Assembly: GCA_034440575.1 (NCBI GenBank)
Contig: JAOTOL010001243.1
Coordinates: forward strand, 101,001 to 165,000
Length of the DNA: 64,000 nucleotides
From: Imbricaverruca yamaguchii
Taxonomy: Eukaryota > Arthropoda > Thecostraca > Neoverrucidae
Direction of reading: 5' to 3'
A program made the position numbers and the translations under genes. Numbering within the stretch: position 1 is the stretch's first letter; every line of letters starts with the position of its first letter. Below, piece by piece: positions 1 through 63,722 of this stretch. The notes beneath the pieces are model-generated. The model did no database searches. It saw only the letters and a list, made by a program, of their open reading frames with translations, and was not told the origin of the DNA.

Positions 1-590
1 GTCCGAGGCTGGCGAGGCGAGCCAGCAGCAACAGCCACGGCGGCAGTCGGAGAGCGCGGACCGGCCCCGTCGCCGCTGGCGAGACGACACGTCGGCGGCC
101 GAGCTGCGAGCCGCGCTGGTGATGCGACACGCATCGGAGGAGAGCGCCGCCTCGCCGCGGCACGGCGACTGCACGCCAGCCTCCCCGCGCAGCGAGCAGG
201 GCGCCGGCGACGCCACGTACAGGACAGAGACGGCGGGGGACTCAACATACAGGGCAGGGACGGTCGGCGATGCCGCGTGCAGAGCGGACGATGCTGACGT
301 CACGCAGCGCGGCGCCGAGCTGTGCGTCAACTCTCCGCCGGGTGTGGGCGGAGCCGACCGCCTCCTCCGCGAGCCGGTCGAGCCGGACGCGCCGCCCGAC
401 GGCCAGCCGGCCGCGGCGGTGGACATTCCCGTCGGCTGGCGGAGCGTGCTGAACGGCCTGACGACGGCGGCCATTCCGAGGCGTGCCAGTCTGGGCACCG
501 ACTCGGCGTCAACGGCCACCCGACCTGTGCTCGCCCGCCGCCACCCCGCTCCGCCTCCCGTCACCTTGGAGCAGTCCCCGCGCCAGGCAG
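1..590 (+). CDS. CCP110: CP110-like exon 1 of window
   Basis: The frame is open from base 2 to the donor CAG|GTAGGT at 591, and the exon ends in phase 1. The translation is low-complexity, rich in Ala, Ser, Pro, Arg and Gln, with no domain I recognise. The exon may start before the window. Its last 20 bases and donor are the first copy of a 49-bp tandem array that continues into the intron. Confidence 0.6.
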
Positions 591-63400: not shown

Positions 63401-63722
63401 ACAGACCCTATGGCAGGCGTTCTGTCGCAGTACCGACCCCGTGGAAGGAGTTCTCGTCGATCCAGATGATGCGGTTGTGCGCCAAGAACAGTCTGGCCAG
63501 GTGCAGGCCGGAGAAGGCGGCGCGTCGCAGACTCGTCAGCTGGTTGTACTGCAGGTAGAGGTCGTGCAGGCGCACCGAGCCGTTGAACAGGCGGTGCGGA
63601 AGCTCCTCGAGCCGGTTGTGCGCGAGATGGAGTTCGGACATGCGTCTCGACTCGCCCAGTGACTCGGACGGCAGGTGCTTGATGTAGTTGTCTGCGAAGA
63701 CATGTGAAGCATTGGTCTGCAG
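24289..63722 (-). CDS. chp: Chaoptin-like LRR cell-surface protein, 3' part (8 exons in window)
   Basis: Exons in transcript order: 63722-63438, 61135-59264, 58281-58203, 53376-53229, 41118-40950, 40239-40038, 26106-25938 and 24442-24289. All junctions are GT/AG and all phases agree, giving 1026 codons including the stop. The protein is about 35 extracellular-type LRRs (LxxLxLxxNxL) with NxS/T glycosylation sites. Next comes a more divergent LRR region, an LRRCT cap (CDC, then C, then C across the last intron), and a C-terminal hydrophobic stretch LLVPPLLLMLLMHLLGVT with no charged tail. From family knowledge, chaoptin is a ~1100-residue, LRR-only, GPI-anchored adhesion protein of arthropod photoreceptors, and this layout matches it. 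Other LRR-only surface proteins are possible. The signal peptide and first LRRs lie beyond 64000. The introns total about 36 kb. Confidence 0.75.
24555..25030. repeat. 45-bp array with 90-bp dimer order
   Basis: Units alternate between GAGAGGGACAGACAGAACAC and GAGTGGGACATGCAGAACAC within CACAGACGGGACATAGCGGC contexts, making a 90-bp higher-order unit repeated four times. The array lies just upstream (in transcript order) of the last chaoptin-like exon. Confidence 0.9.
25405..25937 (-). repeat. 75-bp in-frame array on the LRRCT-exon donor
   Basis: Seven copies on the - strand read in frame as CTDLRSVHDTVRSGYHMQQL plus VLQVP, 25 residues each with no stop. Copies of the donor AG|GTCAGT persist at 25862, 25712, 25637 and 25562. 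They are AG|ATCAGT at 25787 and 25487. The last copy ends in CAG|GTGAGTA at about 25401. Confidence 0.93.
25938..26106 (-). CDS. chp: Chaoptin-like exon, LRRCT cap
   Basis: The acceptor CTGTTTCAG|GC joins phase 1, reading GGIALGENHWVCDCGLTWLG. The N-x-W-x-CDC-x-L-x-W signature is diagnostic of an LRR C-terminal cap. A third Cys is in TCTDL, just before the donor CTCAG|GTCAGT (phase 2). The fourth Cys (ELRC) is in the next exon. The 3' end of the exon is the first copy of a 75-bp, in-frame tandem array that fills the start of the next intron. Confidence 0.85.
26107..29516 (-). other. Giant chaoptin-like intron, 3' part
   Basis: Contains an (AG)n tract at 26607-26680 and degenerate ~30-bp repeats at 26940-28100 (see findings). 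I see no gene. Confidence 0.5.
26607..26680. repeat. (GA)n microsatellite
   Basis: A nearly pure GA run of about 70 bases. Confidence 0.95.
29517..35700. repeat. 6.2-kb satellite of 61-bp units
   Basis: About 100 copies of CAGGCGGCCTAATGACCAGG plus TGACACGACGGTCCGCATCC plus GACACCCTCCCGTGACACCAA, lying inside the chaoptin-like intron. Unit variants (AATAACC, GGCACCC, CTCTCGTG, CAACATCC) allow internal order to be read. Confidence 0.97.
35705..37607 (-). other. Giant intron, middle part
   Basis: Unique A/T-rich intron. I see no gene, array or element. Confidence 0.5.
37608..37867. mobile_element. MITE-like element
   Basis: Bounded by imperfect terminal inverted repeats CAAGGGCGGATC (left) and CAGGGGCGGATC (right, complemented), 260 bp. 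Similar CAGGGGCGGATC ends are common on small DNA transposons. No clear target-site duplication. Confidence 0.4.
38538..38646. repeat. (AT)n(GT)n microsatellite
   Basis: (TA)n for about 28 bases, then (TG)n for about 75 bases. Confidence 0.95.
38900..39956 (-). mobile_element. 5'-truncated LINE, reverse transcriptase C-terminal half
   Basis: Two open frames, 39402-39923 and 39013-39393, give one decayed RT. They show GVVQGSILGPAMFLIFSDDI, then YADD and the thumb region, then a C-terminal IWGSCNRAQKRRIKKCINFG. A stop and frameshift separate them. The element lacks its 5' half and starts at about 39956, directly against the donor array of the 40038 exon. It is a non-LTR retrotransposon; the clade is uncertain. 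Confidence 0.85.
39957..40037 (-). repeat. 26-27-bp array on the 40038-exon donor
   Basis: On the - strand, AAAG|GTCAGTCACTGGTATTATCG recurs as GAAG|GTCAGTC, AAAAG|GTCAGTC and CAAAG|GTCAGTC. The exon end itself (ACTGGGATCATCAAAG) is the first unit. Confidence 0.9.
40038..40239 (-). CDS. chp: Chaoptin-like exon, last LRRs
   Basis: The acceptor CGGACAG|GG and donor ATCAAAG|GTCAGT take phase 0 to phase 1. It encodes ELVLQLRDTSISGLPDDLLR and DVTSLTLDLRRNRLINMS, then a linker ending TGTGIIK. The last bases and donor recur three more times in 26-27-bp units just downstream (39957-40037), where a truncated LINE begins. Confidence 0.78.
40330..40790. repeat. 30-bp minisatellite
   Basis: About 15 copies of CTCTGACCGTATACATTTAC plus ACCAGCTGC and its variants in the intron between two chaoptin-like exons. 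Confidence 0.9.
40950..41118 (-). CDS. chp: Chaoptin-like exon, divergent LRRs
   Basis: The acceptor GTCACAG|G joins phase 2, and the donor TTCCAG|GTCAGT leaves phase 0. It encodes LGSVLNGLRSLRRLHVEV, then KLKELRLTGRNLQQIDPEAF. After the donor, two or three degenerate ~36-bp repeats with CAGCTGGA are visible in the intron. It follows a 12.1-kb intron. Confidence 0.75.
41575..41926. repeat. 176-bp perfect tandem duplication
   Basis: 41575-41750 and 41751-41926 appear identical except for C/G near the end (GGGTTCAAACG against GGGTTGAAACG). A recent event or an assembly duplication. Confidence 0.93.
41927..43914 (-). other. Intron, unique part
   Basis: A/T-rich chaoptin-like intron with no supported gene or repeat. 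Confidence 0.5.
43915..44120. repeat. 20-bp minisatellite
   Basis: About ten copies of GATGAATCATGAAATTGGAA with single-base variants. Confidence 0.93.
44907..46230. repeat. Inverted 16-bp array, foldback-like
   Basis: 44930-45850 is a tandem of GTACGTAAGCGCAAAT-like 16-mers. 45860-46225 is the same unit in reverse complement. The ends are related: GGACAAATGTAC on the left and GTACATTTGTCC on the right. Inverted repeats built of short tandem units are the layout of foldback transposons. No transposase is seen. Confidence 0.75.
46490..46740. repeat. 20-bp minisatellite
   Basis: About 12 copies of CATGCCTGGCCCCCACATCC and its variants. Confidence 0.9.
47609..47714 (+). mobile_element. SINE family A, 5'-truncated copy
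   Basis: Matches the body of the 3469-3640 element (GGACATTTCCCAATCCTGCG, GGGCGGCGCCATTA, GTGCATAAAGTG) and ends in ATAAACAAACAAAC. The tRNA-like head is missing. Confidence 0.75.
49103..50578 (-). pseudogene. LINE reverse transcriptase, inactive
   Basis: A 491-codon frame covering RT motifs 0-9 and the thumb. The metal-binding YxDD box reads FEDD, so the residue between the aromatic and the two aspartates is Glu rather than Ala. The N-terminal junction with the endonuclease is broken. Confidence 0.88.
50681..51610 (-). pseudogene. LINE AP-type endonuclease domain
   Basis: The 309-codon frame shows LRIGAFYRSGT, CIILGDFNLKG, SFLDLVFSD and GRSDHYIVRF, the catalytic motifs of apurinic-type LINE endonucleases. 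The N-terminal part extends upstream in a broken frame (ITEAWVSEGYFGDNL). Confidence 0.85.
51939..52280 (-). pseudogene. LINE SGNH/esterase-like domain fragment
   Basis: Contains LQDYRALLATLKGNNRVIV, ILPRAGASPEW, and a C-terminal DGLHFTEKGVHVLG (Asp-x-x-His, as in SGNH hydrolases). CR1 and L2 elements carry such a domain in ORF1. It is separated from the endonuclease by stops. Confidence 0.7.
53229..53376 (-). CDS. chp: Chaoptin-like exon, divergent LRRs
   Basis: The acceptor CTTTCTCAG|AG and donor TACAG|GTATGT take phase 1 to phase 2. It encodes ESFSGLDHMRELSLLEQYRL and MRELEKLSITTCPQIEKYR. These are the irregular LRRs with a Cys that I associate with the membrane-proximal part of chaoptin. 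The flanks are free of arrays. Confidence 0.75.
53377..56940 (-). other. Chaoptin-like intron, unique
   Basis: Unique A/T-rich sequence with only short random frames. I see no gene or array. Confidence 0.5.
56941..57118 (-). mobile_element. SINE family B copy
   Basis: On the - strand, a tRNA-like head (GGTATCTCAGTCGAAAGG, then GTGGGTTCGAATAC) is followed by the body GAGAGGCTGGCGACGCTACG shared with 14685-14850. Confidence 0.75.
58203..58281 (-). CDS. chp: Chaoptin-like exon, single LRR
   Basis: A 79-base exon with acceptor GGCAG|GTCCCC, donor AACG|GTGAGC, and phase 0 to 1. It encodes SQTWMHTPLLRTLHMSANPI followed by QILN, one LRR that continues the unit broken at the end of the main exon. 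No tandem array flanks it. Confidence 0.75.
59264..61135 (-). CDS. chp: Chaoptin-like main LRR exon
   Basis: One uninterrupted 624-codon exon from the acceptor CCGTCAG|GTA to the consensus donor GGCG|GTGAGTG, phase 0 at both ends. It holds about 25 LRRs of 23-26 residues with the extracellular consensus LxxLDLSxNxLxxLP. Sequons include NLS, NVT and NVS. The frame also opens from an ATG at 61168, but that stretch lies 5' of the acceptor. Strong GC bias at third positions contrasts with the A/T-rich introns. The opposite strand also shows long open frames; these are shadows caused by the GC bias. Confidence 0.9.
61136..62936 (-). other. Chaoptin-like intron, unique part
   Basis: Unique intron sequence; no gene is supported. 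It ends at the 31-bp donor array. Confidence 0.5.
62937..63440 (-). repeat. 31-bp array on the 63438-exon donor
   Basis: About 16 copies. On the - strand each reads CCACGGGGTCTGTACTGCGA plus CAGAGCGCCTG. The exon/intron boundary CCACGGG|GTCGGTACTGCG is the first copy, so each unit carries a GGG|GTCTGT look-alike of the donor. Confidence 0.92.
63438..63722 (-). CDS. chp: Chaoptin-like exon, LRRs (first in window)
   Basis: The acceptor ACCCCCAG at about 63723 (or 6 bases later, same phase) opens 95 codons. Typical repeats include SELHLAHNRLEELPHRLF and LYLQYNQL. The exon ends NSFHG with the weak donor GGG|GTCGGT, phase 0. The next exon continues VAHSLIALDLDGNQL, completing an LRR. The donor is the first copy of a 31-bp array in the intron. 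Confidence 0.75.

What the first reader, a model, noticed from the sequence alone, without database searches (positions are those of the whole stretch)
571..63440. Minisatellites anchored on splice sites across two unrelated genes
Seen directly: at nine of 17 donors (591, 3130, 4574, 6944, 11711, 16399 on +; 63437, 40037, 25937 on -) the first unit of a tandem array is the exon's own 3' end plus the GT. At the exon 10 acceptor the array unit is tract + AG + exon start. Unit lengths differ (26-27, 31, 31, 35, 49, ~61, 75 bp) and sequences are unrelated, so these are independent births, not one element spreading. Inference: this genome has a process that repeatedly tandem-amplifies AG|GT junctions, lengthening introns and making back-up splice sites. 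The known AGGT-duplication model of intron gain is the nearest precedent, but recurrent amplification at existing sites is different.
Basis: partly seen in the sequence, partly recalled or inferred. Interest (0 to 1): 0.92.

Follow-up and report, generated by a model that had tools for sequence, protein, structure and literature searches.

The report
Minisatellites seeded on exon ends
In one stretch of barnacle DNA, six of sixteen splice donors lie in the first copy of their own tandem repeat, far more than random placement gives; the repeats likely began as separate duplications across the exon edge, whose extra copies would be removed by splicing.

Summary
The window is barnacle DNA with CP110 (+) and chaoptin (-), both modelled against Amphibalanus amphitrite proteins. 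Of 16 donors, 6 lie inside a default-TRF array that starts in the exon and runs into the intron (590, 4573, 6943, 63438, 40038, 25938); random placement gives 0.38-0.67, and 0 of 5000 trials reached 6. A seventh (11710) appears only with relaxed settings. 3130 is not supported. 16399 is not a donor: that array starts on the last 15 coding bases, stop codon included. The exon-10 acceptor array is real.

Best reading: independent tandem duplications across exon-intron edges; the original exon and donor stay first, and the copies fall in the intron and are presumably spliced out. A general AG|GT-amplifying process is not supported (AGGT is not enriched in the other arrays), nor are back-up sites in general (the first spare donor is out of frame in 5 of 6), though 11 of 43 spare donors would be in frame and open. 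Intron gain is rejected for the donor arrays. Why donors are covered so often is unexplained. Single-locus precedents exist. No RNA, second barnacle genome or genome-wide test was available.

The parts
1..16408 (+). CP110 (centriolar coiled-coil protein) gene, 3' part: exons ..590, 1573-1709, 1907-2094, 2706-3129, 4403-4573, 5896-5985, 6818-6943, 8997-9178, 11592-11710, 16227-16408 (TGA)
   Evidence: homology to A. amphitrite P0001/P0002; one open frame over the joined exons, GT-AG introns
24289..63691 (-). chaoptin gene, 3' part: exons 63691-63438, 61135-59264, 58281-58203, 53376-53229, 41118-40950, 40239-40038, 26106-25938, 24442-24289 (stop)
   Evidence: homology to A. amphitrite P0004; joined protein 1014 aa, 689 of 1013 aligned residues identical; LRR domains in the 59264-61138 exon
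572..711 (+). 49-bp array across the CP110 donor at 590 (19 exonic nt)
   Evidence: TRF; exon part 21/22 identical to copy consensus; p=0.001
4552..4839 (+). 31-bp array across the CP110 donor at 4573 (22 exonic nt)
   Evidence: TRF; exon part 21/22; p=0.0015
6940..7334 (+). 35-bp array starting at the CP110 donor at 6943 (4 exonic nt)
   Evidence: TRF; exon part beyond the donor consensus weak: 8/16, p=0.083
11676..11822 (+). diverged array across the CP110 donor at 11710 (35 exonic nt)
   Evidence: relaxed TRF only; p=0.0025
15678..16239 (+). 53-bp array across the CP110 exon-10 acceptor at 16227; unit = pyrimidine tract + AG + first 13 exonic nt
   Evidence: TRF; sequence; p=0.0005
   Evidence: TRF; sequence; stop supported by homolog end ..RAWR
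62875..63448 (-). 31-bp array across the chaoptin donor at 63438 (11 exonic nt)
   Evidence: TRF; 14/22; p=0.002
39958..40058 (-). 23-bp array across the chaoptin donor at 40038 (21 exonic nt)
   Evidence: TRF; 17/21; p=0.015
25413..25975 (-). 75-bp array across the chaoptin donor at 25938 (38 exonic nt); frame stays open through it
   Evidence: TRF; 31/40; p=0.0015

Best explanation
Six of sixteen splice donors in this barnacle window lie in the first copy of a tandem array that runs from the exon end into the intron, and each array most likely began as an independent tandem duplication across an existing exon-intron edge. Inferred course: a segment of 23-75 bp holding the exon tail, the donor and the start of the intron was duplicated in tandem; the original exon and its donor stayed 5'-most, so splicing at that donor would remove every later copy with the intron, and the array could grow like any other minisatellite at little cost. 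Duplications inside coding sequence would be lost, which fits the default arrays holding coding bases only at exon edges (143 of 5256; seven junctions and one stop codon). Duplications across an acceptor would be tolerated less often, because the added acceptors come before the true one; the donor-acceptor difference is modest (6 of 16 against 1 of 17). This tolerance alone does not explain the excess over arrays that lie wholly inside introns: some bias in the birth or the retention of donor-covering duplications is also needed. I think retention or a chromatin- or transcription-linked birth bias more likely than a motif-driven one, but this step is untested.
For: Arrays cross 6 of 16 donors vs 0.38-0.67 expected, 0 of 5000, in both genes separately. 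Exon sequence outside the donor consensus recurs in its own intron at 6 of 16 donors with p<0.016 (590, 4573, 11710, 63438, 40038, 25938). The exon tails keep amino acids shared with A. amphitrite (for example LE-SPRQA at 590, RQATCTDLR at 25938), so the exon is likely the source and the array the copy. The exonic share of the unit is spread (0.11-0.91, KS p=0.96, n=6), as expected if any duplication covering the donor qualifies. The first donor pairs with U1 as well as or better than its copies in 6 of 6 arrays (at 40038 only 5 nt were scored). No donor array reaches the acceptor of its intron (80-563 nt of introns of 982-13931 nt). Arrays starting 0-60 nt inside the intron, without crossing the donor, show no excess (1 vs 0.66-1.17).
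Against: One window, passed on because of the pattern; no RNA, no second barnacle genome, and the window's own genome could not be searched. By the plain measure 'is the junction repeated within 600 nt', donors (7 of 16 at score 18 or more) are little above non-coding AGGT decoys (34.5% of 528) and random non-coding sites (25.6% of 1385); the excess is over coding sites (4.5% of 600) and over random placement of arrays. At 6943 the exon is barely in the unit. Arrays also stop 12-55 nt short of four acceptors (4 vs 0.66-1.15 expected; 14 and 93 of 5000), so arrays may hug exons for a wider reason. Two further acceptors show weak exon-start similarity (p=0.010, 0.039 among 17). With relaxed TRF 1338 of 5256 coding bases fall in arrays, so 'no arrays inside exons' holds at default stringency only. 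The reason for the excess is not explained.
Confidence: 0.6

Rival explanations
1. The arrays are kept because they are useful: extra donor-like sites recruit U1 and strengthen or regulate splicing of long, repeat-rich introns, or give alternative isoforms as in human IFI6.
For: GT is kept at the donor position in 41 of 45 copies examined (degenerate end copies not counted). 11 of 43 spare donors would be in frame and stop-free, all 4 in the 75-bp array. An A. amphitrite model (P0003) has 20 extra residues exactly at the homologue of the 3129 donor, as if a donor 60 nt downstream were used. IFI6 uses downstream repeat units as donors (one sentence and a reference title in PMC4526556).
Against: The donor window is not clearly better conserved than the rest of the unit: share of windows at least as conserved 0.45, 0.29, 0.63, 0.10, 0.09, 1.0. 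First spare donor out of frame in 5 of 6; unit lengths show no preference for multiples of three (1 of 6). The P0003 insert is not a copy of the sequence before it (1 of 20 residues).
Confidence: 0.17
2. One reading: a genome-wide process that specifically amplifies AG|GT junctions.
For: Five of the six donor-array units contain AGGT (read; not the exon A unit); AGGT sites in non-coding DNA lie in repeats slightly more often than random sites (34.5% vs 25.6%, junction arrays included).
Against: AGGT not enriched in 31 other arrays (9 vs 7.5). The junction is not at a fixed place in the unit. An array of the same kind sits on a stop codon and another on an acceptor.
Confidence: 0.1
3. Ascertainment: the genome is so rich in minisatellites (15,387 of 64,000 bases here) that some window shows many by chance, and this one was picked.
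For: Array density is high; the finding was selected after looking; n is 16 donors.
Against: 0 of 5000 in two placement models, one within the same intron; both genes show it.
Confidence: 0.1
4. Intron gain by tandem duplication of AGGT-bearing exon sequence (Rogers model): the arrays are young introns.
For: Units hold exon end plus AG|GT, the ingredients of that model (passages in PMC4974935).
Against: The model needs the last copy to supply the acceptor; no donor array reaches its acceptor and each fills only part of the intron. Intron age in other arthropods was not tested.
Confidence: 0.03

Closest known systems
Human IFI6 (6-16) minisatellite with multiple splice donors (Turri, Cuin and Porter 1995, NAR 23:1854)
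   Same: A minisatellite at a splice donor whose units provide donor sites.
   Different: One locus there, several independent arrays in two neighbouring genes here; use of the extra donors is reported there and untested here. The paper itself is not held; I saw its title in two reference lists and one sentence in PMC4526556.
Intron gain by tandem duplication of an AGGT-bearing exon segment (Rogers 1989; ATP2A1; fission yeast 24-bp multiple duplication; potato RdRp)
   Same: Tandem duplication involving exon sequence with AGGT; in potato the duplicate crosses an intron-exon boundary (passages in PMC4974935).
   Different: There the duplication creates a new intron; here the array sits at the start of an intron whose acceptor lies beyond it.
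Human introns from tandem arrays (Zhuo et al. 2007, PNAS)
   Same: Links tandem arrays to splice sites.
   Different: Known to me only as a title in the reference list of PMC3488318 and from recall: arrays there give rise to introns, here they extend existing ones.
Ordinary intronic minisatellites
   Same: Unit 23-75 bp, high copy identity, diverged end copies.
   Different: Ordinary ones have no stated tie to exon edges; these contain the exon tail.

Membership tests
Minisatellite | Head-to-tail units of about 10-100 bp | tested here: met
   TRF units 23-75 bp at the six donors
IFI6-type donor minisatellite | Array unit contains the exon end and 5' splice site | tested here: met
   6 of 16 donors by default TRF, exon part clear at 5 of those 6
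IFI6-type donor minisatellite | Downstream units are used as donors in transcripts | not testable with these tools
   no RNA data; only a lead from the A. amphitrite model P0003
Intron gain by AGGT tandem duplication | Copies supply both the donor and the acceptor of the intron | tested here: not met
   donor arrays cover 80-563 nt of introns of 982-13931 nt and none reaches its acceptor
Intron gain by AGGT tandem duplication | Relatives lack the intron | not tested
   no annotated genomic DNA of relatives was at hand
Introner-type element (one mobile element in many introns) | Same sequence family at different introns | tested here: not met
   28 pairs among 8 edge units: 6 at p<0.05, 2 at p<0.01; of the six alignments shown the e5-E one is just the donor motif and the others are gapped or loose
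   9 of 31 other arrays vs 7.5 expected

The most novel reading that the evidence does not exclude
In barnacles exon 3' ends are recurrent birthplaces of minisatellites genome-wide: donor-covering tandem duplications arise or are kept at over ten times the rate of other intronic duplications, so that a large share of genes carries private arrays of spare donors that load U1 at intron starts and feed alternative splicing and intron growth.
Probability: 0.25. Interest if true: 0.82.

Novelty: new variant of a known kind. Interest (0 to 1): 0.6.

Why it matters
If the excess holds genome-wide, exon edges would be a source of minisatellites and a way for introns to grow without new splice sites, and barnacles would offer many natural tests of how the spliceosome picks one donor among near-identical tandem copies. 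It would also give hundreds of failed or arrested cases of the step that the AGGT-duplication model of intron gain needs. If it does not hold, the window is a cluster in a repeat-rich genome.

Tried and rejected
Back-up splice sites as the general function: rejected as a general reading on frame and conservation, left open for the 75-bp array. AG|GT as the seed: not supported. Intron gain: rejected for the donor arrays. The A. amphitrite P0003 isoform as evidence of a tandem donor pair: not a copy. Pfam gave no family for the CP110 chain; identity rests on the named A. amphitrite hits. Literature: nine searches of the open library listed no paper on recurrent arrays across splice donors in barnacles or elsewhere, judged from titles and abstract starts; passages read in PMC4526556, PMC2572611, PMC8270832, PMC8917513, PMC4974935, PMC3488318, PMC2891723, PMC3152781, PMC4039745. 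Species: not determined; A. amphitrite is only a relative (50-68% protein identity).
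Full report
What the window is. The + strand carries CP110 and the - strand chaoptin of a barnacle. A search with the joined CP110 exons gave three proteins, all from Amphibalanus amphitrite, 50-52% identical (7991 best candidates scored). The best hit for the chaoptin chain was A. amphitrite chaoptin. With the exon I found later (41118-40950), the eight chaoptin exons join into one open frame of 1014 residues, 689 of 1013 aligned residues identical to that protein. 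All 16 donors are GT and all 17 acceptors AG. CP110 and chaoptin of A. amphitrite are both on a contig of 416,812 bases, so the neighbourhood is likely conserved. The species of the window is not determined.

Observation. Default TRF gives 38 merged arrays of period 10 or more, 15,387 bases. Six cross a donor, one crosses an acceptor (exon 10 of CP110), one starts on the CP110 stop codon. These eight hold all 143 of 5256 coding bases that lie in arrays; with relaxed settings 1338 coding bases do, so the statement holds for default stringency only. The copies are plain to the eye: at 590 the exon tail matches the copy consensus at 21 of 22 bases, at 4573 21 of 22, at 40038 17 of 21, at 25938 31 of 40, at 63438 14 of 22, at 6943 only 8 of 16. 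To be sure that this is not the donor consensus, I left out the last three exonic bases and compared -30..-4 with the following 600 nt of the same intron, against 2000 random coding 27-mers: p = 0.001 (590), 0.0015 (4573), 0.0025 (11710), 0.002 (63438), 0.015 (40038), 0.0015 (25938), 0.083 (6943), 0.96 (3129); the other eight donors gave 0.17-0.99. Among 17 acceptors, exon 10 of CP110 gave 0.0005, chaoptin 40239 0.010, chaoptin 41118 0.039, the rest above 0.05.

Chance. Arrays were re-placed at random, allowing up to 40 coding bases each. Donors covered: observed 6, mean 0.38 anywhere, 0.67 within the same intron, 0 of 5000 reaching 6 in each. Acceptors covered: 1 against 0.37 and 0.68. Stops: 1 against 0.05 (241 and 251 of 5000). 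Arrays beginning 0-60 nt inside the intron after a donor: 1 against 0.66 and 1.17. Arrays ending 0-60 nt before an acceptor: 4 against 0.66 and 1.15 (14 and 93 of 5000). The donor result stands in 18 settings (0-39 of 3000) and in each gene alone (11 and 0 of 3000), and with relaxed arrays (7 against 0.79 and 1.01, 0 of 5000 each). Donors against acceptors: 6 of 16 and 1 of 17, Fisher p = 0.039. A weaker test points the same way less clearly: within 600 nt, 7 of 16 donors are repeated at score 18 or more, against 4.5% of 600 coding sites but 34.5% of 528 non-coding AGGT sites and 25.6% of 1385 random non-coding sites. So it is not being repeated that is special, but arrays reaching across a coding edge.

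How it likely works. The exon tails keep residues shared with A. amphitrite, so I infer that the exon was copied into the array. The junction lies anywhere within the unit (exonic share 0.11, 0.35, 0.39, 0.51, 0.71, 0.91), so breakpoints are not tied to AG|GT. After a duplication across a donor the old exon and donor remain first; splicing there would remove the rest (inferred, no RNA). The first donor pairs with U1 at least as well as its copies in all six, though at 40038 only five bases were scored. Use of the next donor would shift the frame in five of six arrays; over all 43 spare donors tested, 11 would be in frame and free of stops: 2 of 8 at 4573, 3 of 9 at 6943, 2 of 4 at 40038, 4 of 4 at 25938, 0 of 1 at 590, 0 of 17 at 63438. 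Donor positions are kept in 41 of 45 copies examined but not clearly more than the rest of the unit. This fits tolerated duplication better than maintained back-up sites, without excluding use of spare donors at 25938.

What stays open. Tolerance explains why arrays are absent inside exons and why the edge copy is intact, but not why donors are covered some ten times more often than random placement gives. Either such duplications are born more often (chromatin, transcription) or they are kept more often (extra U1 sites). AGGT is no general seed: 9 of 31 other arrays hold it, 7.5 expected. Of 28 pairs among eight edge units, 6 are similar at p<0.05 and 2 at p<0.01, too little for one spreading element.

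Known ground. Donor minisatellites are known at one human locus (IFI6; seen as a reference and one sentence; paper not held). Tandem duplication of AGGT-bearing exon sequence is the Rogers model of intron gain, with a 24-bp multiple duplication in fission yeast and a boundary-crossing one in potato (passages of PMC4974935). The barnacle genome papers whose passages I saw (PMC8270832, PMC8917513) do not use the word tandem; the first reports at least 40% high-copy repeats and extreme coding diversity in Balanus improvisus. The pattern here is a new variant: recurrent, independent, at existing introns.

Noticed in passing
49106-52307 (-): A non-LTR retrotransposon in a chaoptin intron: reverse transcriptase, endonuclease and a GDSL-like hydrolase frame.
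   Followed up: partly
39405-39932 (-): A second partial reverse transcriptase frame just after the 40038 donor array.
   Followed up: partly
29509-35697: A 61-bp array of about 102 copies (6.2 kb) in a chaoptin intron.
   Followed up: no
44930-46225: A 16-bp array of CAAATGTACGTAAGCG-like units followed by the reverse complement units, head to head.
   Followed up: no
4385, 8984, 11536, 24498: Arrays stop 12-55 nt before four acceptors, more often than random placement gives.
   Followed up: partly
CP110 donor 3129: A. amphitrite model P0003 has 20 extra residues exactly at the homologous junction, as if a donor 60 nt downstream were used.
   Followed up: partly
all 16 donors: Seven donors read GTCAGY (3129, 4573, 5985, 6943, 40950, 40038, 25938), an unusual +3 C; four of the six array donors are among them (read).
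   Followed up: no
24289-63691 and 1-16408: CP110 and chaoptin are also on one contig of the same length (416,812) in A. amphitrite.
   Followed up: no
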